DNA of 64,000 bases from assembly GCF_004379255.2 (NCBI RefSeq), contig NC_056033.1:23614209-23678208 (forward strand), given 5' to 3'. The translations under genes and the position numbers were made by a program. This DNA comes from Salvia splendens. Lineage: Eukaryota; Streptophyta; Magnoliopsida; Lamiales; Lamiaceae. Each line of letters begins with the position of its first letter. Positions within the stretch are counted from its first letter, which is position 1. Below are positions 34,176 through 62,598 of the stretch, one piece after another. The notes under the pieces were generated by a model, which had not been told where the DNA came from, searched no databases, and was given only the letters and a program-made list of their open reading frames with translations.

Positions 34176-34241
<66 letters not shown>
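34176..34241. repeat. (TA)n tract at the left edge of the element chain
   Basis: About 33 uninterrupted TA units, followed immediately by the terminus AGGGTCCTGTTAGG of E1. Equivalent tracts are at every junction of the chain. Confidence 0.97.
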
Positions 34242-34245
<4 letters not shown>

Positions 34246-34466
34246 CCTGTTAGGTTGAGATTATTTACCTAAATTGAGAAATGAGATGCAATATCGGCCA
34301 TTAATCCACAAGATTAACTAAATGTCAACAGCTATCACATTATGTCAACACAGGGGTATAACTGTCATTTCATTAATCGAATGGTGGAAAAAATAAAATT
34401 ATATTTCAAATCATTTTCCAAACTCTCTAAAACACTCGGTGAAATATTTTCTGTGCAAACACAAAT

Positions 34467-37400
34467 TTGCTGAACTTCCTTCAAACATACATTTCTACAA
34501 CGACGAATGAAGACGAAATTCGAAGAAAATTGGTTGAAGCGCCGATTGTAGCTGAATCGGTTGAAGCGACAATCGAAGAAAATCGGCGTTCCACATCAGC
34601 GCTGGTTCTGCCTTCTTCAGCGGTGATTCCAACTTCTTCCGCGGTGGTTCCGACTTCTTCAGGTTCAGCAATTGATTCAAATTTGAAATATATTGCTTCG
34701 ATTTTAGTTTATTAAATTAAATCTGGATTTGTTTTTTTATGAATTTGATTTGTGCTGATTTTTTTTGTTGATTAGCCATGGTAAAATCGAAATTGGAAGC
34801 ATCACCTACCAGTTAAGGATTTGGTTAAATTCTTAAGATTATTGACATTTCATACAATAGCTACTGACATAGCTATGATAACAGTATATGCTTGTTTGAA
34901 TAGCTGTTAGGATGACTGTAGATTGAACCAGAAAGAGTTATTGATACAGATTTATTTTATTTCATTTCATACAATAGCTATTGACATAGCTATAAAACAG
35001 AGTATCTGCTTATTTGAACAGAGTATATGATTTGTTTAACATGGCTATTGACATAGGTATTGACATAGATTTATTAACAGAGTATACTTAATGCTTTAAC
35101 TTATTATTGATATAGATTAATTGTGATTCATTTTAAACCAGAAAATAGAAAAATATCAAAGCGAAAAAGGAGTACCTCGGTATCACAGGAAGAGTTAATG
35201 AATGTTGAGAAAAAACAAAAGAAAAGTATAGAGAATGAAAAAATTGAGTCAGAATGCTGAAAATGTATCTCAAAGGCTTCTAGTGAAAAGGAAGTCTTTG
35301 TTTTTTGTTGATGCAATAAGCCAATTGAAATGAGGCACAGATTAATTCTGTGGAGGAGATTGGTTTTGAGAGTGTCTTGCATTACATAATAGAATACATT
35401 CCTAGTAGATTAGCATTTTCTTTGTTGAAGAGCTTTGATGAAGAAAAGTGTAAGATAAAGCTTTATAATGGGAAAAAAAATTCATATCACGGAAGAGGAT
35501 GTGGAGCTTGTGTATGGATTTCCAAGAGGTAACATTACTTACTGTAGAGAGAAGTGGAAAAGTAATGAACCTTTCATGAGGGAGTTAGCAGAACAATGTG
35601 ATACGAAACCAGGAAATGTGAACCATAAAGCTGTTGAACAGCTTATGTTAAAAGATAAGGAAGGAGGACCACAGTTCAAGAGATTGTTCTTGGTCCTATT
35701 AGAATCCGCATTGATTGAGCCTTCAACACGTGGAATGATAAAAACTAAGATTGGAGAGATAATTGATGACTTGGATAACGTAAGAAATATCAATTGGTGT
35801 TCGTATACAATCTCTGTGCTCAAGTTTGCTATGGGAAATTGGTCGAAGACAGAGGAGAACGCCTTTGCAGAACCACTTCCCTTCCTCATGGTATGTTTTA
35901 CATTTTGCATTACATTACTTATTGAAATGACTTGTATGTGTAGTTGATATAGCTTGTACTATAGTTGACATTAGTTATATAAGGGGCTTGTGTATGCAGT
36001 TGACACTACACACCAGTAATTGACATGAATTTTTTAACATATGCAGCTCTACTACTTAGACAGAGTTACACAAGACACGCGTCTTGTTCCTCGCACATTT
36101 CCATTAATGAAAGGATGGAAAAGTGAGCATCTACAGGCTAGAGAAGATAGAGAGACAAGTGAAGGAGTTTTTGGTTTAGGACGTATAAAGAAGAGGTATG
36201 TTCGTACTCTGGAGCAGCATGAGGAAGAGAAGCAGGAGGCTGAGGTGGAGGAGCAGATGCATCAACAACAGATTCCCGATGACTGTGCGGTTGGGTCTTC
36301 CCAGAACCTACTCCCAAAAAATTTCTTACAGGAGGAGCAACAGCAAGGGAATGATGAAAAAAGTGTTGATGTAAATGAAAGTGGAGTTGGATCTTCTTCT
36401 CAGAACATACTCCCATCACATATGGTGGCCAATGTAGTAAAATACATCAAGCAGATAAATGATGGCAGGACCAACTAGGGCTGGGAAAATATACCGAAAT
36501 ACCGAAATACCGCACTTACCGTACCGGAAATATACCGAAAATACTGAATTTTCGGTATACCGTACTTTTCGGTACGGTATCATACCGTACCGACAGTTTT
36601 AGGTACGATAAAGGTATGCATTTTGTATATACCGCGGTATACCGCATTATACCGCATCATACTGCAATTGCGGTATATACCGCAAATTTATGGTATATAC
36701 CGCAAATTTACGGTATATACCGCAAATAACACGGTATACTGCAAATACGGTATATACCGCAGTTGCGGTATATACCGGAAATCACGGTATACCGCGGTAT
36801 ACCGCAATATGCGGTATACCGACAAAAGTGGTACGGTAACGATATCTAAATTTGGTATACCGACTTTTCGGTATACCGCAATTGCGGTATATCGACAAAA
36901 GCGGTACGGTAAAGGTATGGCTTTTGGTCATACCGCACGGTACGGTATGCGATATGGCCATTTCGGCGCGGTATACCGTGCCGTTCCAACCCTAGGACCA
37001 ACCTTCTGAGAGTCCTCAAAGAAGCTTCATCACAGATCGAGAATAATGATTTATTTGGACTTGTTTGTGATATAGCTAGAAGTGCAATTAGAAGCAAAAA
37101 GTCTCCAGTTGCCTCTGTGAGTGACATTTTTCTCCACTTGTCACAGTCATATAATATAGACAACGATGTTGCTATTGATAACTGGAAAGCTTTGTTTGAT
37201 TCAATACGGAATGCTGAAAAAGCAAGCGAAACAATTGAAGACTTGAATGAATTTCCAACTTTCAGATTGGATTATTTCTTTGATAAAGTAAGTACATAAA
37301 CAACCTATAATGATATTAATACATCATTTTGTTGATATATGTTTCTCTTAGTTGACATTGAATTATTCTTATGGTTTAGAAAGTAACATTGTTGAACTAA

Positions 37401-39810
37401 TTTTTGAACAGGCTGTAGAATAAAGAAACAAAGATAACTTACCTACCTCACCAGTTGGTGATCCTGAAGAGGTCAGACCGTCTGTTGAAGAAGACGAACA
37501 AAGAAAGGAGACCGTGATTTGTGATGACCATAACGAATCAAACTCTCCTATCTCGACAGCCATACTAGGAACTCCACGGACAGCATCCCCATCTCTCCGG
37601 CAACAAGAAGTCAATGCTTCAGAGCATGACAACACACTGGCATCACTAATAGGATCTGAGAACAGGGGAAGTGAGTTAGAAATTCAAGAAGATGTTGAAG
37701 CTGATAGAGAGTTAAGAACACAAGATGCCTTGCACATATTATCAAAAGTATGTGGTGACTATGAAATCGGCAACAATGAAGAAGCAATCAAGGCCACAAA
37801 CACCATTGTTGATATCATAAATGAACGGGTACAATTTACAATGATTATCTTAAACTCCTGAAGCTTTGTATATAAATTTTATAGATTTTATATAAGTTAT
37901 TGACATTGTGGATATCGTATTTGACATTGATAAATACATAATTAACATGATATAGCATGGAGTTTCAGTAGTAAATATAAATTGTATATATGGAGTTTCA
38001 GGAAGACAGGGAGGATGTAGCTGCATGCTCAATTGTTGAGTATATGATGCAAGAGGGTCTTGAAACAATAGATGACACACCTCCTGAATGGAACGTGCAA
38101 AAACAAGGATATAAATGGATAGAGAAGATGCATGAGGAAAAAGAAAAAACTCCTGAAAACGCAGAGAGAAGAATGACTGTCTACCAAGTAAAATAAGTAA
38201 AATTAACCTTATTATTTTTAAAAAAATGACTGAATTGTTGTTGACATTGCTTGTAATAGTTGTTAAAATGACTTGTATGTATAGTTGACATAACTTGTAT
38301 GTTCAGTTGACACGATATGTATTCTAGTTGACATAATTATATTAGTTATTGATATGGTCAGTATAATATAGTTGACATGATTTGTAATTGTAAGTAACAT
38401 TAAATTCACTGACAACAGAACCCTGTTCCAATCTGTGAGATTCCACTGGCTGAAGCTAGAGAGAGACGGACTCATGCTGAAATGCGTTCTAGCCCAGTGC
38501 TACGCTCACCATTTGAAATACGAGCTGTGCATATGAAACCAACCCTGAACCTGGATGAAAGAGATATCTACTACTACATAGTAGAAACTGAAGGAACAAA
38601 TGAGTATTCATAATTTAATTCTTTGAATCACTTTTAAATTTCTATGCAGTTGACATAATTTATGAATGATGTTTAAATTTTGTCTGCACACTTTCATTTA
38701 AGTGATACATGTGCTTACACTAATGACTTTGTTTGGGCAAGCAAATGAGTGCTTTCATCTTTGAAACCCCATATAGAAATCAGTATAGGTGTAATTGATG
38801 TATGGGCAACATACCTAAACTTCAGAGAAACAGAAAGGGCAGAAACGTCACCTCCACGCCTGTTTCTAACAACATCCCCATGCGTGAGTAATTTAAATTT
38901 ATATAAAAATTATTTGAATGACATATTTCACTCACAAAAAAATGTTGAATGCAATATTTGAATATAACAAATCGGGAGCCTCATTGGAATCCATTACAAT
39001 CCAAGAACAACTTTATGTCACGAATTGATCAAGAGACTAGTAGAATACAATATTTTGATTGGAGAAAAATTGATTTGGTAACAAATTTATTTTTGTACAG
39101 AGATCTCACAATGTCAACAACATAAATTTGGACAGGTGTTGTCAAATTCCTTTCTCTAATATTTTCTCTCATGTTATACAGGTCTTCTTCCCAGTTTTTA
39201 CAATTGGCTATTACTACCTTGTTGTATTTTGGATGAAGATCAACAAAATTGAGATAATAGATAGTGTCAAACCACCTAAAGCCAAGGATCCATTGGAAAA
39301 GTATAGAATTGATGTTGGAATACTGGTATGCTTTTTTCAATAAAATTGACATTATGTTTACATTTTGTTGACATAATTTATGCATCTTGTCAAAATGCTT
39401 TGTATAAATAGTTTAGTTTAGTTTTGTTTATATATTTGCAGAAAGATATGTTTGAGACATACTTCAAAGAGAAGAACATATCAGGGCTATCAGAAAATAT
39501 AAAGAAGTCTCCATACAAAGTTGTTCCTTTAGATTGGGCCACAAGCACCCATAAAGAAGATAGTGGCATATATTTGATGAGACACATGGAAACTTACTTT
39601 GGCAGAAAGGGAAGGGAATGGAATATTGGTTTTTCTCCACGTGGCACAAAGATTTTACAGATACTCAGAGGAAGATATTGCGAAGCGATGCTTACATCAA
39701 GGAGCAATAAGAAGTGTATGGATATGGTACGCGTCCTTGATGACTGGATGACAGCAAACAAGCACAGATTACCTGAGTTACAGAACAAGTTCAAGGCTGT
39801 AGAAGTTTGA
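34467..39810 (+). pseudogene. ULP1-like cysteine protease gene, copy 1 (E1)
   Basis: About eleven exons can be traced: 34467-34662, a short one near 34776, 35142-35890, 36047-37287 (interrupted by a hAT MITE), 37412-37828, 38002-38187, 38419-~38605, 38703-38883, ~38950-39077, 39182-39325 and 39442-39810. The N-terminal half has the plant domain that precedes transposon-borne ULPs (GFESVLHYIIEYIPSRLAF, IHITEEDVELVYGFPRG). The C-terminal half is the Ulp1/C48 protease, which would remove SUMO or a similar tag. The catalytic His position is Tyr (TAT, 39209-39211) and the catalytic Cys is Ser (AGT, 39562-39564, in EDSGIYL), while the Asp of EIIDS remains. Also broken: a frameshift at an A-run (~35471), TAA at ~37421, TGA at ~38746, and the acceptor before ~38950 changed from AG to AT. 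It would be inactive even if translated. Confidence 0.82.
36476..36994. mobile_element. hAT-type MITE full of CGGTATACCG repeats
   Basis: Ends TAGGGCTGGGAA...TTCCAACCCTA, with a perfect 8-bp duplication GGACCAAC (36468-36475 and 36995-37002), the hAT signature. The 519-bp body is almost entirely short units built on GGTATACCGC and ACCGCAAAT, many self-complementary. It interrupts an exon of ULP copy 1, where the two exon halves align with the uninterrupted copy 2. A 128-residue frame (36623-37009) is only the repeat read through. Confidence 0.93.
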
Positions 39811-39857
39811 TTTATAAGCCGTTTTTATCTCCTGCCTAAAAAATAATTTCTAAAACA

Positions 39858-42800
39858 ATGACAGGGGAATCGATTGACATTCAGGAACCGATTGAGCAGT
39901 CGACCGTTGCTGGAAAAATGACGTCCAATTTGAAGGTCAACACCAAATCGACTGAACCGACTCTTTCAGGTTAAAGATTACATTCGTTTTTTAATTGTAT
40001 GGCCTTAATTTTAGTTTTTTAAAACAAAGTTTGAGTATTCAAAAATTTTATGGTTTGGTTTTCATAATTTAGTTATTTGATGAGTTCGAATTCTGCTTTT
40101 TTTGGGGGGTTGATTAGCTATGGAAATTGACGAAGGGTCGGAAGCGGGAAATAAAGAAACAGAGGAAAAATCTTCTTCGAGTTAAGTACTCCTGCTATAT
40201 ATTTAAATTACAATAATTATTGACATTAAAGGATGTCTGTTGACATAGTGGTGTTGACATTTTGAAGTAGTATCTCAATAGCTATTGACATAGTGTAGAA
40301 AACAAGGTATGCTTGCCCTTGTTATATATATGGCTGTTACGATGGCTGACTTATATGTGTACTTGCCATTGTTATATAATTGTTATATATATGGTTGTTA
40401 TTAACATAGGTAAGGATAATTTCATACAATACCTATCGTCATAGCTATAGACATAGCTATAATAACCAGTTAAGGATTTGTTTGAATAGCTGTATATTGA
40501 ACCAAAAAGAGTTATTGATATAGATTTATTGTGTTTCATTTTGGATTTATTAACAGAGTATACTTAATGGCCAAACTTATTATTGATATAGATTTATTGT
40601 GTTTCATTTTAAACCAGAAAACAGGAAAATATCAAAGCAAAAAAGGAGTACCTCGGTATCTCAGAAAGAGTTAATGAATGTTGAGAAAAAACAAAAGAAA
40701 AGTATAGAGGATGAAAAACAGAGTCAGAATGCTGAAAAGGTATCTCAAAGGCTTATAGTGAAAAGGAATCCTTTGTTTTTTGTTGATGCAATAAGCCAAT
40801 TGAATGAGGCACAAATTAATTATGTGAAGGAGATGGGTTTTGAGAGTGTCTTGCATTACAGAATTGAATACATTCCTAGTAGATTAGCATTTTCTTTGTT
40901 GAAGAGCTTTGATGAAGAAAAGTGTAAGATAAAGCTTTGTAATGGCAAAAAAATTCACATCACGGAAGAGAATGTGGAGCTTTTGTATTGATTTCCAAGA
41001 GGTGACATTACTTACTGCAGGGAGTAATGTACCTTTAATGAGGGAGTTAGCAGAGCAATGTGATACGAAACCAGCAAACGTGAACCATAAAGCTGTTGAA
41101 CAGCTTATGTTAGCCGATCAGGAAGGAGGACCACAATTCAAGAGATTGTTCTTGGTCCTATTAGAATCCGCATTGATTGAGCCTTCAACATGTGGAATAA
41201 TAAAATCTAAGATTGGAGAGATAGTTGATGATTTGGATAATGTTAGAAATATCAACTGGTGTTCATATACAATCTTTGTGCTCAAGTTTGCTATGGAAAA
41301 TTGGTCGAAGACAGAAAAAATGCCTTTGCAGGACCACTTCCCTTCCTCATGGTATGTTTTACATTTTGCATTACATTACTTATTGAAATGACTTGTATGT
41401 GTAGTTGATATAGCTTGTAATTAGCTGACATAAGTTGTATTAGTTATTTAAGTGGCTTCTATATTGAGTTGACACTACACACTAGTAATTGACATGCATT
41501 TTTTAACATGTGCAGCTTTGCTAGTTAGATAGAGTTATACAAGACAAGCGTCCTATTCCTTGCTCACTTCCGTTAATGAAAGGATGGAAAAGTGAACATC
41601 TTCAGGCTAGAGAAGATAAAGAGATCAGAGAAAGAGTTTTTGGTTTAGGACGTATAAAGAAGAGATATATTTTGGACAAGGAGGAGCAGCATGGGGAGGG
41701 GTAGGAGAAAAAGGAGGAGAAGGAGCACGAGCAGGAGGAACACGAGGAGGAGGAGGAGGAGGAGGAGGAGGAGGAACATGTACCTCAACCACAGATGACT
41801 CCTGACAGTGGGTTGGGTCTTCCCATAATCTACAAATACCAAAAAAATTCATAAAGAATGTAGTAACAAACATTCTTGACATGAATCAAGGGAAAGTCAA
41901 TCTTGTCAAGACCCTTAAAGAAGCTCCTCTACACATCAAAACTAATTATTTATTCAGAATATTGTGTGATATGGCTAGATCTTCAGTTGGAAGCCAAACA
42001 ACGACAATTGAGGTTGTGAATGAGAAGTGTCAACTATTGTCCAAGATGTTTGAGGAAGACAAGCCTGAAACTTTTGATCGTTGGAAAACAATCTCAGAAT
42101 CAATACTTCTTGCTCAAAAAGAAAAGGAAGCACTTGAAGATTTGGCTGAATTTCCAACTTTCAAAACGCCACGTTTCTTAGATAAAGTAAGTACATCATT
42201 TTCTTTACATATGTTTCTCTGAGTTCATATTAGATTACTCCTGTAGTTTAGATACTAACATTGTAGAACTAATTTACAAGCAGTATGCAGAGCAAGGAAA
42301 CAGAGAAAATATCCCTACTTCGCCAGTTTCTGATCCTAAAGGGGTGAGCCAAATCCTATCTTTTGTTATTTAGAATCAATTGAAATTAAATTGATATTAA
42401 TTATAAATTACTAATTGAATAGGCTGCTGAAGAAGGAGAAGGAGAAGGAGAAGGAGAAGGAGAAGGAACAAAAGAGGACACAGTGGTTGATGACAGTAAT
42501 GAATCAGCCTCTCCTTCTTACCACCAGCTGCAGGCCCAACGGATGACGCATATGTTGAAACGAACAAAGAAAATCAACTGGACAAAGGGAAAGAGAAAGA
42601 AGATAATATTGTTAAAGTAAAATAACTAAACTATGATTAAAATGACTGAATTGTTTTTTATATGGCTTGATAGTGAAGTTGACATTTGGTTTTAATTGTT
42701 GTTGACATGTTTTTTGTGTAGTTGACATGACTTGAAAGTGAAGTTGGCATTTGGTTTTAATTGTTGTTGACATGTTTTTTGTGTAGTTGACATGACTTGA

Positions 42801-44563
42801 AAGTGAAGTTGGCATTTGGTTTTAACTGTTATTGTCATGGCTTCTGTGTGTAGTTGACATGACTTCTGTGTGTAGTTGACATGACTTATGATTGTTGTTG
42901 ACATGGCTTATGATTGTTTTTAACATGACTTATAATTGTAGTTGACATCGTTCTATGTGTAGTTGACATAGTATGTAACATAGTTGACATGACTTGTACA
43001 TGTAGTTGACACGATATGTGCTGAAGTTGACATGACTTGTATGTGATGTTGACACGAGATGCACCATAGTTGACATAATTATATTACTTGCTGACATGGC
43101 TAGTATATATATTTGACATAATTTTAATTGTAACTAACATGAATTCTATTGCACTGATAACAGAATGTTGTTCCATTCTGGGAGATTCCAGTGCCAAAAG
43201 TCAGAGTGAAAAAGTCTCATGCTGAAACGCATTCTGACCCATTCATAGGCTCTCCATTTGACATAAGAGCTGTACATACAAAAACATACCTGGAAGCTAA
43301 TGAAAGAGATGTCTACTACTACATACTAGAAACAGAAGGAATAGACAAGTATGCATCATTTAATTATTTCATTGATCTAAAAAATATTTTTTAGTTTTCT
43401 GTGCAGTTAACATGATTGAAGAATGTTGTTCTTGTGTCGTTTGTATAACTTCATTTCAGAGATGCATGCGTTTATGAGGATGATTTTGCTTGGGCGACCA
43501 AGGAATTGTTTTCGTCACTGAAGCCCCATGAAGGATTTAATGCGGGTGTAATTAGTGCATGGGCTTCACACCTTAACAACAGAGAAAAAGAAAGGCCCAC
43601 AACATCACTTTCACGCTTTTTCCTGACTACATCTCCATGTGTAAGTAATCTTAAATTATAGGTGAACTGTTTGAATCAGACGTCTCCTTAACCAAACTTG
43701 TTAAATGCAGAATTTAAATGTAACAAATCGGCCGGATAATTGGGATGGTTCGACAGCAAAAAAGAATTTCATTTCTCAGATAGATAATGAGATTCAAAGA
43801 AGACCAGATTTCAACTGGAGATAAATTGATTTGGTAATGACATCTCACAATGACATTTACGTAAGAATATGAAATGTGTTCTTTCTATATAATTTTATCT
43901 TTAATGTCATTTTATCTTTCATGTCATACAGGTTTTCTTCCCAGTTTGTGCAAATTTTCATTACTATCTTGTAGTATATTAGATGAAGAAAAACACCATT
44001 GGGATAATAGATAACAACAAGCCACATAAAGCTATGGATCCGTTCGAGAAGTATGACATTGATATTGGTTTAATGGTATGCTTTTATCTATGTTATTGAC
44101 ATATTCTATACATTTAGTTTACATAATTTCTACATCATGTTCAAATGCTTTGTTTGTGTAGTTTGATTTAGTTATTTATATATTTTGCAGAAAGATATGT
44201 TTGAAGCATACTTCATAGAGAAGAAAATGTTAGATATTTCAGAGAATGTAAACAAGTCTTCAATCAACTTTCTGCCTTTAGAGTGGGCCACAAGCACGAT
44301 CAACAAGGACTGTGGTATCGATTTGATGAGGCACATGGAGACCTATGTTGGCAAAAAGGGCAGTGAATGAGATATTGGCCTCTCTGGACGTAGTAAAGAT
44401 TCCCCAGATACTCAGGGGAAGGTATTGCTACACGATGATTTCATCGATTTACAATAACCAAAGGTCGCCAATGTTACAACAGGCTCATGATTGGATGGAA
44501 GCAAACATGGAGAAATTGCTTGAGCTAAACAACAAGTACAAGGAGTTGTTTAGTTGTAAGTAA
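39858..44563 (+). pseudogene. ULP1-like cysteine protease gene, copy 2 (E1)
   Basis: Tandem duplicate of copy 1 with the same exon pattern and 48 bp behind it. Exon 1 starts MTGESIDIQEPIEQ (39858, donor at ~39969); later exons are at ~40120, 40615-41350, 41516-42187, 42284-42342, 42424-42616, 43165-43350, 43460-43639, 43710-43824, 43933-44077 and 44191-44563. Unlike copy 1, the catalytic residues are kept: His CAT at 43959-43961 (FHYYLVVY), Asp in GIIDN, Cys TGT at 44311-44313 (KDCGIDL). Yet it is broken: TGA at 40989-40991, a deletion/frameshift at ~41020, another near 41318, a stop at ~41524, TAG at ~43980 and TGA at ~44368. Acidic linkers come from (GAG)n at 41695-41780 and (GAAGGA)n at 42428-42468. 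Most closely resembles the fragment in E2. Confidence 0.82.
42612..43160 (+). repeat. GTTGACAT motif array in an intron of ULP copy 2
   Basis: About a dozen GTTGACAT octamers by eye, plus GTTGACAC and GTTGGCAT variants, every ~20-30 bp, all on the + strand and none seen reversed. A typical unit is GTAGTTGACATGACTTGTAT. Similar, thinner arrays fill other introns and spacers of E1 and E2, always reading in the direction of transcription of the surrounding gene. Confidence 0.88.
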
Positions 44564-52145: not shown

Positions 52146-52151
<6 letters not shown>

Positions 52152-52187: not shown

Positions 52188-52189
<2 letters not shown>

Positions 52190-52501
52190 TCCATGATCAA
52201 TTGAGATTTTTTAAGCTAATTGAGAAATGAGATGCAATCTCAGCCACACATTTTTATTAAATGAGTGGTCCAGATTTTGCCACACAAAAAATATTTTTAA
52301 ATTAATTTATTCTGAAAGGGGTATAATGGTAATTTAAGTTAGAAACAAATGAAACACGTGTGGTTTCCAGCACTCCAATTCCATTCCCAATTTTCCTCCA
52401 ATTCCATTCCCAAATTTCCTCCATTAAAGCAACGCCTGTACCAAATCTTCAACCAATTAGCCAATGGAAGGCGTTTCCGCCACCGTCTACCGAGGAAGCT
52501 C

Positions 52502-52653
52502 ATGAGAAGATTATCCAAAGTAGGCGACTCGTCGCAGTAGTGGCTGCTCAGATCGGAGTCGCTGCGGAAGCGCTCCTCCTCCGGCGGCGTTCCAGAGGGG
52601 CACCTGCCGGTGTATGTCAGGGACGAGATGGAGCGATTCGTGGTGAGCGCGGA
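52502..52653 (+). pseudogene. Captured SAUR gene fragment
   Basis: Reads MRRLSKVGDSS, a TAG stop (52538-52540), then WLLRSESLRKRSSSGG and VPEGHLPVYVRDEMERFVVSAE. VPEGHLPVYVG-EMERFVVSAE is the core signature of SAUR (small auxin up RNA) proteins. It lies at the position where E1 has only element sequence, so it was acquired by the E2 lineage. Continuation LLNHPVF... is missing; element sequence follows directly. Confidence 0.82.
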
Positions 52654-52936
52654 GCGATTCCAATGCTTTCTGATTCAATTGATTCGAAAATTAGAACACA
52701 GATGATTTCAACGATCTCGGATTCGACGATTCCTCAGCATATCAATTTTTGAAAAAATGACTAATTCGACGGAGTTTGGTTGAATCTGAAGTTTTTAGGT
52801 TGATTTTATCGACTTTGATTCTGTTTTTATGCTTTATTTGTTGATTCGCAGTCGAATTTGTTCCTAATCAGTTTTTTTTGCCTTTTCATCTTTAGCTTCG
52901 AGTTCAATTCATAATCAATACCTAAGGTGTTATCTG

Positions 52937-55005
52937 ATGGATTCTTCATCTTATTCTGAGTCAACGTTGACGAATGGTGAAGGTAATTTGGATTGGTTTT
53001 CATTAACATGACTTTTTTGTACTTTGTTGGTGAATTATACTACGTTGACATAAATGTACAGTTGTTGATATTTGAATTGATGTTCTGTTGACATAAATGC
53101 AAATCTGTTGACATGATGTATGTTACATGTTAAATATTCTATATAGTTATACTCTTTGTTGACATTTTGTTGACATACAAAATAGTTGTATGCAAAATGC
53201 ACTCTCCCCTGGCTGAAGAGCCCCTGCTGTGGTGTTTGTTGGTGGAGGAAGGTGTTATGGGTAGGGTTGACAGTCCATGATAGGATGTCTAAGATGTTGG
53301 TGTTGGTGTGTTGGTGCTGCGTATTTTGAGATTTTGATTCTGGTGTGGGTCAGTTAAGATATGCTAGTTGACATTATGTTCTGGTTTGAATTGATGTTCT
53401 GTTGACATAAATGCAAATATGTTGACATGATGTATGTTACCTGTTAAATATTCTATGTAGCTATACTAACATTTTGTTGACATACAAAATAGTTGTATGC
53501 AAAATGCACCCTCCCCTGGCTGAAGAACCCCTGCTGTGGTGTTTGTTGGTGGAGTAAGGGGTTATGGGTAGGGTTGAGAGTCCATGATAGGATGTCTGAT
53601 ATGTTGGTGCTGTTTATTTTGAGATTTTGATTCTGGAATCTGGTGTGGGTCAGTTAAGATGTGCTAGTTGACATTATCTGTTTTAGGTTGTTGACATATT
53701 TTCCTATTATGTTGTAGGATATGTTATTCCAATTTGCAACGCTGAGTTGAGGCCCTATGAAGGTCAAAAATTTTCTTCACTTGAGGAGGGAATTTCCTTT
53801 TATGAAAAGTATGCTCAAGAGGCTTGTTTTGATTGTCAAAGATTTGGAAATAGGTCTAGTGGTGGTGTTATTACTTTTTCAGTATGTTGTTTGCAACAGA
53901 CAAGGTTTTCATACAGTTGATCCGTTGGATGTTGATGTAAGTATATCTGAGGATGTGAACGTGTCAGATGATGATGAAGTAACTTCAAAGAAGAAACGCA
54001 GACGTGGCACAAAAAGGTGTGCATGTGGAGCATGGATCAGTTTTAAGTTTTTTTCCTGATTGTGGTGTTAAATATTATCTTGTGCATCAATTCATTAAGG
54101 AACACAATCATGCTATGGTTGACAAAGATCATAACCGATTTATGAAAGGAAGTCGCAGTATGAATGATGTTCATCACAAGTTTGTTGAAGATTGCACCAA
54201 AGCTAACATCGGTCCTACTTCAACTTTCAACTTATTAAAGGAGTTTTTTGGTGGTTATGATGTTGTTGGGTGTACGTTGAATGATGTTAGGAATTGTTCT
54301 CGTGATATTAAAGAGAAACTGAAAGAAGTAGATGTTCAAATGATCCTAAATCAGATGCAAGAAAAGAAGAAAATTTGTGAAGGCTTTTTTCACAAATATC
54401 AAAGGTATGTGAACTGTTTCCTATAGATATTTCAGTTTATTTGTCATATGTTGCTCAAACAGGACGACGACATTCTCTGTATCTAACAAAAACACTCATG
54501 TTTAGTATATTTCAATTTTGTGTTTACATAAACTACATAGGCTGTTGACATGTTACAGATTTAGTGTTCATATAATTTATATAGGATATTGACATGTTAT
54601 ATGTTTGTAGGTTCTAACGAAGATGGCAAGCTACAGATTGGTAACAGGTGTCATGGACGTTACTTTGGTCTATATCAACGCGCTTTTAAGAATAAAAATC
54701 ATCTGATTGCATTGGATAATTTGCTTGCGGGTATTGGTCCTCAAATTTTTACTGATGACACTACTGGATCTTCATCGGTTGATGAAAATGATTCCATCAA
54801 GAACATATATAGTATTGTTGTACCTGAAGAAATAACTGCACATGCTCCAGATGTGGTTAGTACAAAGGGAGGTGCAAGTGACAAGAAAAGCAGGATTAAG
54901 TCAAGCATAGAGAAAGCAATTGAAAAAGCAAGCAACCTTTATAGGCGTTGTGGAAAGTGTTATAAAGTGACTGATCATAATGCCAGGAGTTGTGGCAGAA
55001 AGTAG
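52937..55005 (+). pseudogene. FAR1/MULE-type transposase gene of E2, catalytic core deleted
   Basis: Exon 1 is 52937-52982 (MDSSSYSESTLTNGE), with GT donor. The second exon from ~53719 has YEGQKFSSLEEGISFYEKYA, a frameshift near 53875, then CACGAWISFKFFPDCGVKYY and the block up to CEGFFHKYQ (54400). There the sequence jumps to the intron that in E1 follows the SWIM finger (GTATGTGAACTGTTTCC), so the three acidic catalytic residues and the SWIM finger are gone. The last exon (54609-55005) codes GNRCHGRYFGLYQ and the zinc knuckle CGKCYKVTDHNARSC. Where both exist it is less damaged than the E1 copy: CACGA in place of C*CGA, and no 1-base loss near the equivalent of 47112. Confidence 0.85.
53078..53690. 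repeat. ~300-bp tandem duplication in transposase intron 1 (also in E1 at 47640-48240)
   Basis: Two copies starting TGATGTTCTGTTGACATAAA (53078 and 53390), each with the phrase GTTGTATGCAAAATGCACYC and CCCCTGGCTGAAGA. The same pair, reversed, is in E1, so the duplication predates the split of E1 and E2. Confidence 0.85.
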
Positions 55006-55030
55006 ACATAATTGTTCTTTTTTAAATAGC

Positions 55031-56280
55031 AGAGTTGTTTTTTAGTTTTAACATATGCTACAAGTTATTGACATTTTCTTATTAGTTGTTGATATTTGAT
55101 TTTGCTCTCTATTGAGATTCTATTGTATGATTTTGTTTTTTAATTTTAAGATTTGTTTTCTGAGTTGTACACACTTTATTCAAGCTGTTGACATTTGTGT
55201 ATAAGTTGTTGACATTTCAATACAAGTTGGAGTCAGGCTTGCCTCTGTGCTCCTCGCTGATGAGGGCATCCAGGCTGCCCCAGTCCTGCCTGGAGGGGTA
55301 ATTACAATTACAATTCATGTTTTTAAGGTTAATTACAATTAAAAATTATGTCAACTATGTATACTAGCCATGTCAACAACTAATATAACTATGTCAACTA
55401 TGGTGCATATCGTGTCAACGGCACATACATGTAATGTCAACTACGGTACATATCGTGTCAACTACACGTACAAGCCATGTCAACTGTGTTACAAGACATG
55501 TCATCTACACGTACAAGCCATGTCAGCAACAATCAGAGTTGTTTTTTAGTTGTTAACATATGCTACAAGTTATTGACATTTTCTTATTAGTTGTTGATAT
55601 TTAATTTTGCTCTCTATTGACATTCTTTTGTATGATTTTGTTTTTTTAATTTTAAGATTTGTTTTTTGAGTTGTACACACTTTATTCAAGCTGTTGACAT
55701 TTGTGTATAAGTTGTTGACATTTCAATACAAGTTGGAGGCAGGCTTGCCTCTGTGCTCCTCGCTGATAAGGGCGTTCAGGCTACCCCAGTCCTGCCTGGA
55801 GGGGTAATTACAATTACAATTCATGTTTTTAAGGTTAATTACAATTAAAAATTATGACAACTATATATACTAGCCATGTCAGCAACTAATATAACTATGT
55901 CAACTATGGTGCATATCGTGTCAACGGCACATACATGTCATGCTAACTACGATACATATCGTGTCAACTACACGTACAAGCCATGTCAACTACACGTACA
56001 ACCATGTCAACTGCACATAGAAACTATGTCAACAATTATAAGTCATGTCAATTAGACATACAAGCCATGTCAACAACTATCAGAGTTGTTTTTTAGTGGT
56101 TAACATATACTACAAGTTATTGACATTTTCTTATTAGTTGTTGATATTTGATTTTGCTCTCTATTGACATTCTATTGTATGATTTTGTTTTTTTAATTTT
56201 AAGATTTGTTTTCTGAGTTGTACACACTTTATTCAAGCTGTTGACATTTGTGTATAAGTTGTTGACATTTCAATCAAGTT
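55031..56280. repeat. Spacer tandem repeat (2.5 units of ~505-547 bp) in E2
   Basis: Units start at AGAGTTGTTTTTTAG: 55031, 55535 and (partial) 56082. Each full unit has GTTGACAT motifs on + in its first part, a GC-rich islet (55229-55299 and 55735-55804), an inverted ATTACAATTACAATTCATG pair, and ATGTCAAC (motif on -) in its last part. Confidence 0.9.
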
Positions 56281-56385
56281 GTTGAACTGATTAACATTTG
56301 TTATAACTGCTAAGTTCAAAAGTCTGAATCCACAATAGCAGTTTTAAAACCCATCCAAAAAATAAGTTAACATCAAACATTAATA

Positions 56386-57720
56386 TCACTTTTTGTTTAC
56401 TTCTTTTTTACTAAACAACTCTGTGTACTTGTTGTTTAGCTCAAGCAATTTTTCCATGTTTGCTTCTATCCAATCATGAGCCAGTTGTAACATCGGCGAC
56501 CTTTGGTTATTGTAAATTGATGAAATCATCGTGTAGCAATACCTTCCCCTGAGTATGTGGGGAATCTTTACACCACGCGCAGAGAAGCCAATATCCCATT
56601 CACTGCCCTTTTTGCCAACATAGGTCTCTATGTGCCTTATCAAATAGACACCACAGTCCTTTTTTGTTCGTGCTTGTGGCTCACTCTAAAGGCAGAAAGT
56701 TGATTGAAGACTTGTTTATATTTTCTGAAATATCTAACATTTTCTTCTCTATGAAGTATGCTTCAAACATATCTTTCTGCAAAATATATAAATAACTAAA
56801 TCAAACTACACAAACAAAGCATTTTAACATGATGTAGAAATTATGACAACCAAATGTAGAGAATATGTCAATAACATAGATAAAATCATAACATTAAACC
56901 AATATCAATGTCATACTTCTCGAACGGATCCATATTTTTATGTGGCTTGTTGTTATCTATTATCTCAATAGTGTTTTTCTTCATCCAATATACTACAAGA
57001 TAGTAATGGAAATTTGCACAAACTGGGAAGAAGACCTGTTTGACATGAAAGATAAAATGACATTAAAGATAAAATTATATCCAAAGAACACTTGCTCATA
57101 TTCTTACGTAAATGTCATTGTGAGATCTTATTACCAAATCAATTTTTCTCCAGTTGAAATCTGGTCTTCTTTGAATCTCATTATCTATTTGAGAAATGAA
57201 ATTCTTCTTTGCTGTCGAAGCATCCCAATTATAGCTATGTCAATAGCCATGTCAAACAAATCATATACTCTGTTTTATAGCTATGTCAATAGCTATGGTA
57301 TGAAATGAAACACAATAAATCTATATCAATAACTCTTTCTGGTTCAACCTACAGTCATCCTAACAACTATTCAAACAAGCATATACTGTTATTATAGCTA
57401 TGTCAATAGCTATTGTATGAAATGTCAATAATCTTAAAAATTTAAACAAATCCTTAACTGGAAGGTGATGCTTCCAATTGCGATTCTACCATGGCTAATC
57501 AACAAAAAAATTCAGTAGAAATTGAATTCATAAGAAAACAAATCCAGATTTATTTTAATACACTAAAATCGAAGCAATATACTTAAAATTTGAATCAATT
57601 GTTGAACCTGAAGAAGTCAGAACCATCGCTGAAGAAGTCGGAACCACCGCTGATGTGGAATGCCGATTCTCTTTGATCGGCGCTTCAACCGATTCAGCTA
57701 CAATCGGTGCTTCAACCGGA
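56386..57720 (-). pseudogene. ULP1-like protease gene of E2, only ends left
   Basis: On the minus strand: last exon ~56780-56386 with catalytic Cys (TGT, complement of 56653-56655, in KDCGVYLIRHIETY), the preceding exon ~57036-56894 with the catalytic His (FHYYLVVYWMKKNTIEIIDN), part of the one before (~57240-57130), then a jump to introns and exons 2 and 1 of the gene (57240-57720). Everything between was deleted. The triad His-Asp-Cys is kept in what remains. The reading frame near 56680 (RTKKDC) is shifted. Exon 1 is joined upstream to a captured DUF948-like exon, out of frame. Confidence 0.82.
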
Positions 57721-57726
57721 ACCATT

Positions 57727-57903
57727 GTCACTGAGTTCCATTATCAAGTCTCTGATCTCCATCCCAGATAATCGAAAGACAGCCATGGTGTCCGGCAGCT
57801 CTTCCCTCGTGGCATCCATTAGCTTTTCCAGTGATTCCGCAACTCTCTTGAAGGCATTCAATGCAGAAAAACAGTGGATAGTATAGCATGTCACCACATC
57901 CAA
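57727..57903 (-). pseudogene. Captured DUF948-like (plastid-type) gene fragment
   Basis: Minus strand: FKRVAESLEKLMDATREELP then DTMAVFRLSGMEIRDLIMEL. It resembles uncharacterised plant proteins with a DUF948-like region (family text around ELPDTMAAIRLSGMEISDLT, from memory). Just downstream it fuses with ULP exon 1 at GGTTGAAGC, out of frame, ending in a stop. Sequence 57910-58370 may hold the intron and upstream part. Confidence 0.5.
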
Positions 57904-58470
57904 TCAAAGGAACAAAATCATTGCATTTTACAACCATTGCCTAAAAATCAATATAATTTCATAATTGCATTATCCTTGAAATTGAGTTCTTCATTAGCAT
58001 TGACTTGAATTAGAGTTTCCCTAGAATAGCTACAGGAACTGAAAAACCACTAACTAGTAGGGCTGGAATTGCAGCGCAGAAAAGCCAGGTTGCAGAAACT
58101 GTTGTCAGCAAATCAACACCAAATTAGTGCTAAGATCCCTAAATTTGTAAAACCGACGAAAATACACATTAAACAACTGAAGCTAAGAACCCTAATTTTT
58201 CAAAATGTGGAGATATTCATCACTCAGTTCAATTAGTTTAGCTGAACAACGCAGCGAGCAATCTCCAATCAATATGAAATGAATTAATCATAAGCTGAGT
58301 AGATCTTCCCCAATTATATCAAATTCAGGTAGAGAGAAAGAGATAGAGAGTACGGCGCGGACGGTGAGACTGAGAAATTGAATGTGGCATTCTCGACGGA
58401 GAAAAGAGTGAAAGAAGCGAAGTGGCGGGGAGCGGGCAGCCGGAGACTCAGCCTGCTAGGAGGGGAAACA

Positions 58471-58596
58471 ATGCCGCCATTTCCGCCGCTGGAGGTTCAC
58501 AGAGTCTGCCCGCCGCCACCCAAAACCACCTCTCAGAAGCTCTGCCTCCGCCTCTCCAAGATATTCTTCCCCGACGACCCGCTCCACAAGTTCCAA
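58471..58596 (+). pseudogene. Captured sulfate transporter (SULTR3-like) N-terminal fragment
   Basis: From ATG 58471: LEVHRVCPPPPKTTSQKL, then LSKIFFPDDPLHKF. Plant SULTR proteins have a cytosolic N-terminus with ...VHRVxxPPxx...FFPDDPLxxFxNQ just before the first membrane span. Homology stops after HKF and none of the membrane domain is present. It is in opposite orientation to the DUF948-like piece, so the two were acquired separately. Confidence 0.75.
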
Positions 58597-58784
58597 GGAT
58601 CAGTCGTGGTTTTGGAAACTGATTTTGGGGCTGCAGTTCTTCTTCTCCATTAAAACACGAAATGACACTTATACCCCCGTGTTGACATAATGTGATAGTT
58701 ATTGACATTTAGTTAATCTTGTGGATTAGTGGCTGATATTGCATCTCATTTCTCAATTTAGGTAAATAATCTCAACCTAACAGG

Positions 58785-58788
<4 letters not shown>

Positions 58789-58818
<30 letters not shown>
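58789..58818. repeat. (TA)n junction between E2 and E6
   Basis: About 15 TA units between CAGGACCC of E2 and GGGATGTATTC of E6. Confidence 0.95.
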
Positions 58819-58821
<3 letters not shown>

Positions 58822-60350
58822 ATGTATTCATTTCCTTTTCCTATATTTCCTCCTTTTTCCTTCTTAATATCAGCCATTAGATTAGAGAAATGGACGGTCA
58901 AGATCAACATTGGGTAATTAATCCCGTGTTGCATTATTTGTCCTATTTTGTGCATTATGAGGTTACAATAGTAATCTAATATAGGCTGGAAACAACTACG
59001 AATAATGCACCACATGGTCACGAGTAATGCATATAATTGCCTATATAATGCACAATATGTGAACTGCAATGCATACGAACAAGATGTGATGTGTTATGAT
59101 GTTTGACACACGTTTCTTGTTTCCCCTAAGGGTTTAATAAGCTTAGGGGCTAGGGTATAGTACGTAGACATGTATGTAATCTTCACATGGTAACGAGTAA
59201 TGCATATAATTGACTATATAATGCACAATTTGTGAACTGCAATGCATACGAACAAGATGTGCTGTGTTATGATGTTTGACACACGTTTCTTGTTTCCCCT
59301 AAGGGTTTAATAAGCTTAAGGGCTAGGGTATAGTACGTACGCATTAATAACAAATTATAAAACGATACGAATAATTCACCAAATTGTCACGAGTAATGGA
59401 TGTTATTAACTATATAATGCACAATATGTGAACTGCAATGCATACGAATAAGATGTACCATGTTATGATGTTTGACACACGTTTCTTGTTTCCCCTAAGG
59501 GTTTAATAAGCTTAGGGGCTAGGGTATAGTACGTAGACAATTAACAGCTACATAATGCACTACCTAAACCAAATAATGCACATACGTATATTCCAATAAC
59601 AACAATTTGTTAGTAATGTCTACGTACTATACCCTAGCCCCTAAGCTTATTAAACCCTTAGGGAAACAAGAAACGTGTGTCAAACATCATAACATGGTAC
59701 ATCTTATTCGTATGCATTGCAGTTCACATATTGTGCATTATATAGTTAATAACATCCATTACTCGTGACAATTTGGTGAATTATTCGTATCGTTTTATAA
59801 TTTGTTATTAATGCGTACGTACTATACCCTAGCCCCTAAGCTTATTAAACCCTTAGGGGAAACAAGAAACGTGTGTCAAACATCATAACACATCACATCT
59901 TGTTCGTATGCATTGCAGTTCACAAATTGTGCATTATATAGTCAATTATATCCATTACTCGTTACCATGTGAAGATTACATACGTGTCTACGTACTATAC
60001 CCTAGCCCCTAAGCTTATTAAACCCTTAGGGGAAACAAGAAACGTGTGTCCAAACATCGTAACATGGTACAACTTATTCGTATGCATTGCAGTTCACATA
60101 TTGTGCATTATATAGTCAATTATATGCATTACTCGTGACCATGTGGTGCATTATTCGCAGATACCAAAATGTGGCAGTTACTTTTCCGTCAAATGTCAAT
60201 AATAACCCTGTAATGCATACAACCACCTTCTATAATGCAACACGGAACCAGTTTTATAGAATCAATCTGATCCGTTGATGCCTTAGATCTAACGCGTAAT
60301 ATTAAGAATGAAAAAGGATCTAAGATGTGAAAAGGAGAATAACGCTCCCC
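58819..60350. mobile_element. E6: palindromic element with three + three modules
   Basis: Left end AGGGATGTATTCATTTCC and right end (reversed) AGGGGAGCGTTATTCTCC are related, and TTTTTCMTTCTTAATATYA follows in both. A ~130-bp module is repeated at about 59041-59170, 59211-59345 and 59406-59540, then inverted at 59617-59748, 59811-59944 and 59982-60126. The arms pair outermost with outermost: each right-hand copy shares the variant bases of its left-hand partner. No coding capacity. TAATGCA heptamers are on + in the left half and reversed in the right half. Confidence 0.88.
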
Positions 60351-60354
60351 TATA

Positions 60355-60408
<54 letters not shown>
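60351..60408. repeat. (TA)n junction between E6 and E4
   Basis: About 29 TA units with one TACA interruption (~60372). Confidence 0.95.
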
Positions 60409-60412
<4 letters not shown>

Positions 60413-60792
60413 CATGATCTATGGCAAACACCTCTTAACCATATAACTAGAGAACAAATAATAGCCACAAGATCAAAAAAATCAAGGGCTAGTATTAATT
60501 TTTGAATTTAATGAGATATTAGTTCCCTCAATCACAAATTTACTCCACAATAATAAGGCGGGGGTATAATGGTCATTGCACATCCAAAATTAGATTACAT
60601 CATTGGCATTTGAAAAAGAAACCGCATTCTTCTCTTCTCCTCCTCTTCCTTCTTCTGCAAAATAGTTCTCAGCTCTCCTACTGCCGATTCGTCCGATTGA
60701 AGAGGAATTCGATTGGAAATTATCAATATTTTCGCGATTCAAGTGACTCTCTTTCCCCGACGAAGGAATCTGCATCGGTGTCTCCAATCATC

Positions 60793-60948
60793 ACTCTTCC
60801 AGCGGCCAACAACACCGCCACCGTCAACAAGGCGGCGGCGGCGCTCCGGAAGGAGCTCATCGCGGTGATCAAGGAGAAGAAGGAGGCGATGGCCAAGGGC
60901 GGGCCGCTCTACGACATCTTGTCGCACATGATCGTGGCATCTGACCCC
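60793..60948 (+). pseudogene. Captured cytochrome P450 fragment (CYP716-like)
   Basis: Reads VNKAAAALRKELIAVIKEKK, then EAMAKGGPLYDILSHMIVAS and DP. This is the F-G helix region of plant CYP716-type P450s (triterpene oxidases), where LHDLLSHMIVASDP is conserved. The haem-binding Cys loop and the rest are absent. The 62 codons before it in the same frame do not match P450. Confidence 0.72.
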
Positions 60949-61204
60949 GAGCGGGAACACACAGATCTATGATATAATTTAGCCTGCATTTCCCAATTTA
61001 TCTTCTGTTTTTCTTAGTTTTGATTTCCTTTAATTAGGGAATTAACATTAGGTGATAAGCTATCGTTGCAATTTTTATGATGGGATGTAGTGTAGTATTT
61101 GAATTTTGTGAGATTTTAGCTATGCATTTCAGATGTAGCCCCTTTCTGTTTCTTCTTGCGCTGATCTAATTATAATATCAATGTTGAATTGTCCCAAAAA
61201 TAAT

Positions 61205-62000
61205 CATGCTAAGAGTGAAGAGTGAAGTAAAATCATGCTAAGAGTGATGTGTTTTGTAAACAAGAGTGAAGTAAAATCAGAACAAGAGTGATGTGTTTTG
61301 TGAACAAGAGTGAAGTAAAATCAGAACAAGAGTGAAGTGAAATCAGAACAAGAGTGATGTGTTTTGTGAACAAGAGTGAAGTGAAATCAGAACAAGAGTG
61401 ATGTGGTTTGTGAACAAGAGTGAAGTAAAATCAGAACAAGAGTGATGTTTTGTAAACAAGAGTGAAGTAAAATCACAATAAGAGTGATGTGTTTTGTGAA
61501 CAAGAGTGAAGTAAAATCATAATAAGAGTGATGTGTTTTGTGAACAAGAGTGAAGTAAAATCAGAACAAGAGTGATGTGTTTTGTGAACAAGAGTGAAGT
61601 AAAATCAGAACAAGAGTGATGTTTTGTAAACAAGAGTGAAGTAAAATCAGAACAAGAGTGATGTGTTTTGTGAACAAGAGTGAAGTAAAATCAGAACAAG
61701 AGTGAAGTGAAATCAGAACAAGAGTGATGTGTTTTGTGAACAAGAGTGAAGTGAAATCAGAACAAGAGTGATGTGTTTTGTGAACAAGAGTGAAGTAAAA
61801 TCAGAACAAGAGTGAAGTGAAATCAGAACAAGAGTGATGTGTTTTGTGAACAAGAGTGAAGTGAAATCAGAACAAGAGTGATGTGTTTTGTGAACAAGAG
61901 TGAAGTGAAATCAGAACAAGAGTGATGTGTTTTGTGAACAAGAGTGAAGTAAAATCAGAACAAGAGTGATGTTTTGTAAACAAAAGTGAAGTAAAATCAC
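61205..62000. repeat. 44-bp minisatellite in E4
   Basis: About eighteen copies of the E3 unit in reverse complement (AACAAGAGTGAAGTAAAATC then AGAACAAGAGTGATGTGTTT and TGTG). Some units are shortened (AGTGATGTTTTGTAAACAAG), and blocks of 2-4 units are themselves repeated. Confidence 0.95.
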
Positions 62001-62223
62001 AAGATACATCAGTAACATTAAACGTAGACGGAAACTAACTATATCGAAGACGAATCTTAGAGCCTACAGCCACCGCGCCCCGCTCTTGTTCCGAAACTCC
62101 GCTTCTCTTCTACGGCAGCTCATCGTTGCGTCTCCTTACCCGCCGACGCTGATTCCGGTGAGTCCGACGTAGAGGTAGGTTTTGATTTGGGGTTTTTTCA
62201 GCATTGGCGCGACGATTGAATCC

Positions 62224-62305
62224 GCCAACAGCCCCTCCGCCCCGATCGCCTTTGCCAGCTCCCCCACCGCCGCCAGTATCCTCTCCGGCGCCACCCCCAG
62301 CTCAG
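62224..62305 (-). pseudogene. Captured GGPP-synthase-like fragment
   Basis: Minus strand: ELGVAPERILAAVGELAKAI, GAEGLLADS. GGPP synthases have (V)PPxRVLRAIGELARAIGxEGLVAGQ at the corresponding place. After GL the match is lost and an unrelated frame (KKPQIKTYLYVGLTGISV) follows, which may be from another source. Short, so only moderately sure. Confidence 0.5.
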
Positions 62306-62512
62306 AATTACGATTTGGAAGAAGAAAGGATTGCAGATTTGGAAGATTTCGCGTAATTTGATCGCATGTTTTAATTCAGAAAGTAATTTCCAAAAATACC
62401 CTCAGCATATTTTATTTTATTAAAATTAATAATATTTGTTCCATTAAGATGTGTGGCTGAGATTTGTTCTCTAGTTATACCCTTAAAAATAGTTATATCT
62501 TGATCACTACCC

Positions 62513-62598
62513 TATATATATATATATATTCTGATTTATGTGTGTTGTAAATTTGTAATTAGATTTATGTGCAATGTATCACACTAGATTTATATGTG

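What the first reader, a model, noticed from the sequence alone, without database searches (positions are those of the whole stretch)
34176..62529. Six TIR elements in a row, every junction a (TA)n tract: a microsatellite-targeting Mutator-like family
Seen: elements E1 (34242-48802), E5 (48831-49587), E3 (49607-52151), E2 (52188-58788), E6 (58819-60350) and E4 (60409-62512) are separated only by (TA)n. Ten termini can be read. Most start AGGG or AGG, and six have TGATC at bases 7-12 (E1 right, E5 left, E3 both, E4 both). Known: rice Micron elements are found in (TA)n. Inference: one family uses (TA)n as its target, and each insertion brings or leaves more TA for the next, so elements pile up. 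That would be a self-reinforcing landing pad. Alternative: larger composite units, since the A-type ends at 34242 and 58788 and the B-type ends at 48802 and 52188 also mirror each other around E5-E3.
Basis: partly seen in the sequence, partly recalled or inferred. Interest (0 to 1): 0.88.

Follow-up and report, generated by a model that had tools for sequence, protein, structure and literature searches.

The report
Stack of TA-seeking plant jumping genes
In scarlet sage, six jumping genes of four families lie end to end, joined only by runs of TA, probably because elements of this kind tend to insert into TA runs; such stacks are already known from other plants, but here three of the six also carry pieces that match ordinary plant genes.

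Summary
Six TIR elements (34242-62512) abut only through TA tracts; no TA run over 9 nt lies inside them. They form four TIR families, not one: E1/E2, E3/E4, E5, E6. The genome is Salvia splendens. In best-scoring samples, TA tracts flank 35 of 41 E5-family copies on both sides (tolerant rule; 29 strictly), 29 of 29 non-self E4-type ends and 17 of 20 E1-type ends. 20 of 41 E5 copies meet a terminus of this array's families across the tract. Three E5 copies outside (TA)n have 10-bp duplications. This is 'SaTar' stacking, published for guayule, rice, sorghum and citrus; pineapple has similar clusters. Less expected: E1 carries a FAR1-type MULE transposase (broken here) and two PMD/Ulp1-like genes; E2, E3 and E4 carry host-gene fragments; a public gene model crosses the E2-(TA)18-E3 junction. 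Ten paralogous landing sites lack array and (TA)n, consistent with TA growing at insertion but not proof, since allelic empty sites could not be searched. A known kind, with gene-fragment cargo as the new variant.

The parts
34176..34241 (.). (TA)33 tract, left edge of the stack
34242..48802 (+). E1, family I, 14.6 kb, carries transposase and accessory genes
   Evidence: TIRs; homology to E2; domains
35576..39807 (+). E1 accessory gene copy 1: plant mobile domain (PMD)-like and Ulp1-like parts; equals annotated S. splendens SASPL_105191 (P0127)
   Evidence: PF10536 E 4e-7 but 30.0 bits against a cut-off of 34.9; P0127 exons identical apart from exon edges
40587..44560 (+). E1 accessory gene copy 2, tandem diverged duplicate of copy 1; reads DCG (44305-44346) where copy 1 reads DSG (39556-39597)
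   Evidence: self-alignment 67-89%; translations; positions; similar pair in P0122
45038..47615 (-). E1 FAR1-type MULE transposase, broken by an in-frame stop and a frameshift
   Evidence: PF10551 E 2e-21, PF03101 E 5e-9 on joined pieces, PF10551 E 6e-18 on one uninterrupted ORF; reading frames; relative P0001, 92% over the query
48803..48830 (.). (TA)14 junction E1-E5
48831..49587 (+). E5, family III, 757 bp, no ORF of 90 aa or more listed
   Evidence: 41 near-full-length genomic copies at 94-98%
49588..49606 (.). TA tract (19 nt) junction E5-E3; its last T stands where E3's first G would be expected
49607..52151 (+). E3, family II
49795..50031 (+). host-gene fragment in E3: PF14476 (petal formation-expressed)
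   Evidence: E 8e-22
51712..51930 (-). last exon of annotated model SASPL_105193 (P0138), in E3
52152..52187 (.). (TA)18 junction E3-E2, inside an intron of the SASPL_105193 gene model
52188..58788 (-). E2, family I, inverted relative to E1, lacks the transposase catalytic core
   Evidence: E1 positions 11406-12677 have no counterpart
52356..57819 (-). four exons of SASPL_105193 in E2: 57819-57733, 56625-56542, 52668-52489, 52433-52356
52541..52669 (+). host-gene fragment in E2: SAUR (PF02519)
   Evidence: E 6.9e-7, 29.9 bits, cut-off 26.3; position
58483..58599 (+). host-gene fragment in E2: SULTR-like transporter, N-terminal part
   Evidence: E 9.2e-6 to 9u9f
58789..58818 (.). (TA)15 junction E2-E6
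58819..60350 (+). E6, family IV, with large internal repeats
60351..60408 (.). TA tract (58 nt, one C inside) junction E6-E4
60409..62512 (-). E4, family II, inverted relative to E3
60826..60948 (+). host-gene fragment in E4: cytochrome P450, beta-amyrin 28-monooxygenase-like (P0132, 97.6% over 41 aa; a CYP716C12 entry, P0136, is also matched)
62211..62294 (-). host-gene fragment in E4: geranylgeranyl pyrophosphate synthase
   Evidence: E 9e-5 over 28 residues
62513..62529 (.). (TA)8T tract, right edge of the stack
33872..34175 (.). host repeat left of the stack, including an upstream unit that is a local empty site
62530..62838 (.). continuation of that host repeat to the right: tandem units with bare TA tracts of 47 and 41 nt

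Best explanation
This 28-kb block in Salvia splendens is a stack of six TIR elements of four families, not nested in one another, one of which encodes a Mutator-like (FAR1-type) transposase, joined only by TA tracts, and it was likely built by successive cut-and-paste insertions, each predicted to land inside a (TA)n tract and duplicate 10 bp of it. Shown: the tracts, TIRs and families; the transposase domain; that the sampled copies of families I, II and III are mostly TA-flanked; that sampled E5 copies often stack with these families in differing combinations; 10-bp duplications at three non-TA sites. Inferred: that one or a few related transposases move all four families in trans; that the elements do not nest simply because they hold no TA run over 9 nt while the tracts between them do; that tracts lengthen at or after insertion, so each insertion leaves a bigger target.
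For: Junctions and absence of long TA runs inside elements. Family pairs and TIRs. Transposase and relatives. E5 family: TA tract of 8 nt or more on both sides in 35 of 41 copies by a tolerant rule; perfect 8-nt runs on both sides in 29 of 41; background 18 of 32,992 positions. E4-type ends: 30 of 30 loci read, the window's own included (41 places were listed). E1-type ends: 17 of 20 read, of 39 non-self places listed. Neighbour matching a terminus of this array across the tract: 20 of 41 E5 copies, 6 of them with E5-type neighbours only; 10 of 30 E4-type ends; some of these matches are only 30-50 nt long. TA phase even (8- or 10-bp duplication) in 27 and odd in 2 of 29 E5 copies; non-TA copies L059 (10 of 10), L043 and L057 (9 of 10) show 10-bp duplications; even phase had been noted from the window before the genome could be searched. 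Empty sites: joined flanks align to the upstream unit with score 124, best of 200 shuffles 36; 10 of 10 paralogous sites lack the array.
Against: Even phase does not separate cut-and-paste from recombination between TA tracts. The E1 transposase is broken and E2 lacks the core, so no active source was shown. Only family I is tied to the transposase by its TIRs. E6 flanks were not tabulated genome-wide. Only the best 40 candidates per search were scored, from first-look lists of 1921, 1385 and 1083, so the samples favour young, intact copies, and not all are independent (L027/L028 and L031/L040 share flanks; L041 holds three E5). The tolerant rule counts L059, a non-TA site, as TA-flanked. TA growth is untested at allelic sites; bare TA tracts of 47 and 41 nt stand beside the array without elements, though they could be tandem copies of its right edge. 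Some flanks hold GA, CT or TG repeats (L028, L047, L155).
Confidence: 0.8

Rival explanations
1. Elements enter by homologous recombination: excised circles carrying microsatellite filler between their ends recombine with an existing genomic microsatellite (the model offered for guayule SaTars).
For: Tracts are far longer than a 10-bp duplication and some flanks hold non-TA microsatellites; the model is stated in PMC5907723.
Against: The same family makes 10-bp duplications at non-TA sites, so ordinary transposition works for it; circles were not looked for.
Confidence: 0.15
2. Plain target preference for long (TA)n tracts that already existed; the elements add no TA. (A rival only to the last inferred step of the best explanation.)
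For: TA tracts of 47 and 41 nt stand empty next to the array.
Against: 10 of 10 paralogous landing sites carry a TATTTTTTT-like stretch instead of (TA)n; published MuTAnT empty sites average 9 repeats against about 12-15 per flank when occupied (PMC4486113), and maize TAFTA empty sites are reported as 6-8 bp (PMC5907723).
Confidence: 0.35
3. The block is one larger composite unit or a mirrored duplication (A-B ... B-A) rather than separate insertions.
For: E1/E2 and E3/E4 are inverted pairs.
Against: E5 copies elsewhere have different neighbours (E2-, E3-, E4-, E5- and E6-type ends, or none recognised), and the E4 family occurs at many other places.
Confidence: 0.03
4. Assembly joins across TA repeats made the stack.
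For: TA tracts are classic weak points; no reads were examined.
Against: The two outer flanks continue one host repeat; a published assembly of this species used PacBio reads averaging 7.4 kb at 82x (PMC8408255, passages; not checked to be this one), far longer than the tracts; the same stacking recurs at other loci.
Confidence: 0.04

Closest known systems
SaTar arrays (guayule, rice, sorghum, citrus; Valdes Franco et al. 2018, PMC5907723)
   Same: Different MULE families in non-nested arrays linked by microsatellites, mostly (TA)n; a minority flanked by 10-bp duplications; autonomous-type elements present in the stacks.
   Different: The non-autonomous SaTars described are about 0.2-1.9 kb and the one autonomous element sized in the parts read is 5.3 kb; three of five rice families are called non-Pack-MULEs. 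Here members reach 14.6 kb, three carry host-gene fragments, and one carries PMD/Ulp1-like genes. The words captured, Ulp1 and FAR1 do not occur in that paper's main text.
Ac-mMITE clusters of pineapple (PMC8449440, passages)
   Same: 46.1% of 21,994 full-length elements in non-nested clusters joined by nearly pure (TA)n; 9/10-bp duplications outside TA.
   Different: MITEs only; no autonomous element was found there.
MuTAnT / AutoMuTAnT (Medicago, PMC4486113)
   Same: TA-microsatellite-targeting MULE with G-rich termini that vary in G number and a Jittery-like transposase.
   Different: One family, 9-bp duplications reported, a single transposase ORF, no stacks mentioned in the parts I read.
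Micron (rice) and TAFT/TAFTA (maize)
   Same: Insertion in (TA)n; TAFTA empty sites reported as short and expanded after insertion (as quoted in PMC5907723).
   Different: Original papers not read; no sequence comparison made.
Pack-MULEs and Ulp1-bearing MULEs (Kaonashi/KIU; as reviewed in PMC13317346, passages)
   Same: Host-gene fragments inside a MULE; accessory Ulp1-like gene beside a transposase.
   Different: Neither is described as TA-stacked in the passages read; here the accessory gene also has a PMD-like part and is duplicated in tandem.

Membership tests
SaTar-type microsatellite-targeted MULE array | TIR elements of different families linked by microsatellite without nesting in one another | tested here: met
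SaTar-type microsatellite-targeted MULE array | minority of copies with 8-11 bp target duplications outside microsatellites | tested here: met
   3 of 41 E5 copies, 10 bp; not tested for the other families
SaTar-type microsatellite-targeted MULE array | TIR similarity to a transposase-coding MULE | tested here: inconclusive
   met for E2, which shares E1's TIRs; E3/E4 and E5 share only a short terminal motif and E6 none
Mutator-like (MULE) superfamily | MULE transposase domain | tested here: met
   PF10551 in E1 and in relative P0001
MuTAnT family | 9-bp duplication | tested here: not met
   10-bp duplications and mostly even TA phase in the E5 family
MuTAnT family | TIR start like GGGGTTTGCTAGAACA | tested here: not met
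   termini read otherwise, compared by eye with the mask printed; no alignment run
Pack-MULE | host-gene fragment between MULE TIRs | tested here: met
   E2, E3, E4; short fragments, by similarity only
Pack-MULE | fragment amplified with the element | tested here: met
   P450 fragment in 8 of 8 E4-type copies sampled
Ulp1-bearing MULE (KIU type) | Ulp1/C48 protease domain | tested here: inconclusive
   PF02902 below cut-off in P0122 (E 0.01) and P0130 (E 0.014), not listed at E 1 in P0121, P0123 and P0131; names of 7 of the 11 hits speak of a ubiquitin-like protease family profile; structure model unusable, mean pLDDT 37
Micron / TAFT | sequence relatedness | not tested
   no sequences at hand

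The most novel reading that the evidence does not exclude
TA stacking of fragment-carrying MULEs works as an exon concatenator: pieces of unrelated host genes (SAUR, SULTR, PF14476, cytochrome P450, GGPPS) are delivered by separate insertions to one TA address, where introns can span the (TA)n linkers and yield new chimeric genes, as the annotated model SASPL_105193 across E2-(TA)18-E3 would suggest; each insertion also enlarges the TA target for the next.
Probability: 0.12. Interest if true: 0.75.

Novelty: new variant of a known kind. Interest (0 to 1): 0.42.

Why it matters
It extends microsatellite-driven MULE stacking to a Lamiaceae genome, with large, recently amplified, gene-fragment-bearing members. 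It also gives a simple test that survives TA slippage (slippage moves in steps of two): the phase of the tract reveals whether the hidden duplication is even or odd, and here it pointed to 8 or 10 bp before 10-bp duplications were found at non-TA sites. S. splendens is tetraploid with homoeologous chromosomes, so whether insertions create or merely use TA tracts is directly testable.

Tried and rejected
Structure prediction of a PMD/Ulp1-like homologue (P0131 in a 9-row alignment) gave mean pLDDT 36.9 and was not searched further. A short-pattern scan of viral contigs gave 15 hits, taken as chance and not examined; a plasmid search with E5 gave nothing. A first reading that E4 copies differ in cargo (alignments ending near position 1587) was wrong, an effect of tandem-repeat length and of the edge of the stretches held; fetching the left-hand parts showed the P450 piece in 8 of 8, 7 of 8 matching to the terminus (L139 stops 43 bp short). 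E4's P450 fragment was missed by Pfam and by PDB sequences and found only in the large protein set. Reading E3 left as an odd-phase exception was dropped because the base in place of the first G reads T, as in 7 of 41 left and 4 of 41 right E5 ends. The right-flank genome search mostly hit an unrelated dispersed repeat.
Full report
OBSERVATION. The six elements and their TA joints are real. Tracts of 66, 28, 19, 36, 30, 58 and 17 nt sit at the two edges and five inner joints. Inside the elements the longest TA run is 9 nt, and 20 Markov simulations of the window never exceed 11. BLAST among the elements shows that E1 and E2 are one family in opposite orientation and E3 and E4 another, with homology reaching the first or second terminal base. 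All six have TIR likeness above 200 shuffles, weakest in E3.

ORIGIN. The window is Salvia splendens. Annotated protein SASPL_105191 (P0127) is identical, apart from exon edges, to exons in E1, and the contig length 43,663,975 given for P0127 and P0138 is that of the contig holding the window. A published chromosome-scale assembly of the species is long-read based (PMC8408255, passages); whether it is the same assembly was not checked.

WHAT E1 AND E2 ENCODE. E1's minus strand carries a FAR1-type MULE transposase (PF10551, PF03101), broken by an in-frame stop and a frameshift. E2 lacks the stretch with the catalytic domain. A relative without these breaks exists: P0001, 759 aa, 92% identical, a cluster of 29 member sequences (domains). 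E1's plus strand carries two tandem copies of a gene with a plant-mobile-domain-like and an Ulp1-like part; such a pair also occurs as one annotated protein, P0122. The first copy reads serine (asparagine in P0121) where the second reads cysteine in a DCG motif. Both domain calls are weak: PMD scores lie below Pfam's cut-off in the E1 ORF and in the relatives rescanned, though the precomputed tables list it; the protease assignment rests on names and sub-threshold scores. PMD in MULEs and Ulp1 in MULEs are separately known (PMC5418596, passages; PMC13317346, passages).

HOST-GENE FRAGMENTS. E2 carries SAUR and SULTR-like pieces, E3 a PF14476 piece, E4 a cytochrome P450 piece 97.6% identical over 41 aa to a S. 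splendens beta-amyrin 28-monooxygenase-like protein and a GGPPS piece. Each lies within about 190-420 bp of an element end (positions). E4 is a recent burst: 14 exact genomic copies of its 131-bp right end including the window's own, and the left-hand 600-890 bp compared in 8 sampled copies match 98.9-99.8% with the P450 piece in 8 of 8.

GENOME-WIDE TEST. For the E5 family 41 near-full-length non-self copies were read. TA tracts flank both sides in 35, one side in 4, neither in 2 by a tolerant rule; that rule also counts L059, a non-TA site with a clean 10-bp duplication. With perfect 8-nt runs on both sides the count is 29. At E4-type ends TA follows in 30 of 30 loci read, the window's own included; 41 places were listed. 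At E1-type ends it follows in 17 of 20, the first 20 of 39 non-self places listed. Background: 18 of 32,992 positions. Across the tract, 20 of 41 E5 copies meet a terminus of this array's four families, 14 of them a non-E5 type, as do 10 of 30 E4-type ends. Some of these matches are short. The partners differ from copy to copy, but L027/L028 and L031/L040 share flanks and are not independent, and L041 holds three E5 head to tail. Only the best 40 candidates per search are scored, so old copies are under-sampled. E6 was not tabulated: its search did not complete.

TARGET DUPLICATION. Slippage changes a TA tract by two bases at a time, so tract phase keeps the parity of the hidden duplication. 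I noted even phase from the window before the genome could be searched; E3's left end fits if the T in place of its first G is read as a substitution. 27 of 29 E5 copies have even phase, 2 odd. The three non-TA copies show 10-bp duplications: L059 exact, L043 and L057 with one mismatch. MuTAnT is reported with 9 bp, guayule SaTars with 10 bp.

EMPTY SITES. The stack sits in a dispersed host repeat. Joining its flanks reproduces the upstream unit. In 10 of 10 paralogous places that run on into right-flank-like sequence (two in L064, one upstream in the window, one each in L065-L071) there is no element and no (TA)n at the joint, only TATTTTTTT-like sequence (read by eye). The other loci fetched by that search (L072-L082) gave hits that do not continue into the right flank, or none, and were not counted; 40 of 78 candidates had been scored. 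This is consistent with TA growing at insertion but is not proof, since the paralogs are distant and bare TA tracts of 47 and 41 nt stand just right of the array.

LITERATURE. Modular, non-nested, microsatellite-linked MULE arrays were described in 2018 (PMC5907723: outline, the Results, part 1 of 2 of the Discussion, one more subsection and passages seen). TA-linked MITE clusters in pineapple: PMC8449440 (passages). MuTAnT: PMC4486113 (first two of four parts, up to the start of the references). Micron and TAFT/TAFTA are cited here only as these papers quote them. Searches combining these terms with Pack-MULE, Salvia, Ulp1 or SaTar listed no title or abstract start that reports fragment-carrying TA stacks (open-licence papers only, listings only).

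GENE MODEL ACROSS A JUNCTION. SASPL_105193 (P0138, 217 aa, a computed model) takes exons from E2 (57819-57733, 56625-56542, 52668-52489, 52433-52356) and then from E3 (51930-51712), all on the minus strand, so one intron spans the (TA)18 tract. No expression evidence was available.

VERDICT. A good observation of a published phenomenon, in a new plant lineage as far as my searches show, with gene-fragment cargo and larger members as the new variant. The self-reinforcing part stays open and testable.

Noticed in passing
L036, L046, L120, L143, L146, L147; and L034, L041, L044, L140, L141: Probably two further families not in the window stand across the same kind of TA tracts, with ends like GGGGTGCATTATAATG (in varying form) and GGGTTTTGATCTATGC.
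   Followed up: no
window 36480-36990: A palindrome-rich TATACCG repeat, probably an insertion of another kind, lies in an intron of accessory gene copy 1 in E1 and is not TA-flanked.
   Followed up: no
window 59011-60145 (E6): Large internal tandem repeats and, by eye, inverted repeats make E6 look foldback-like.
   Followed up: no
window 50451-51406 and 61259-61999: E3 and E4 share a 44-bp tandem repeat array of differing copy number at their centre.
   Followed up: partly
window 15601-16746 (-) and 30173-31921 (+): Ty1-copia-type retrotransposon coding remnants (RVT_2; integrase core in the second); neighbouring ORFs at 28580-29437 and 32033-32821 gave no Pfam hit.
   Followed up: partly
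window 18918-20447 (+): Protein kinase ORF of 509 aa, probably a host kinase gene.
   Followed up: partly
window 63045-63289: A dispersed repeat, mostly 80-87% identical in the listed copies; the search with the surrounding 939 bp had 4506 first-look candidates.
   Followed up: no
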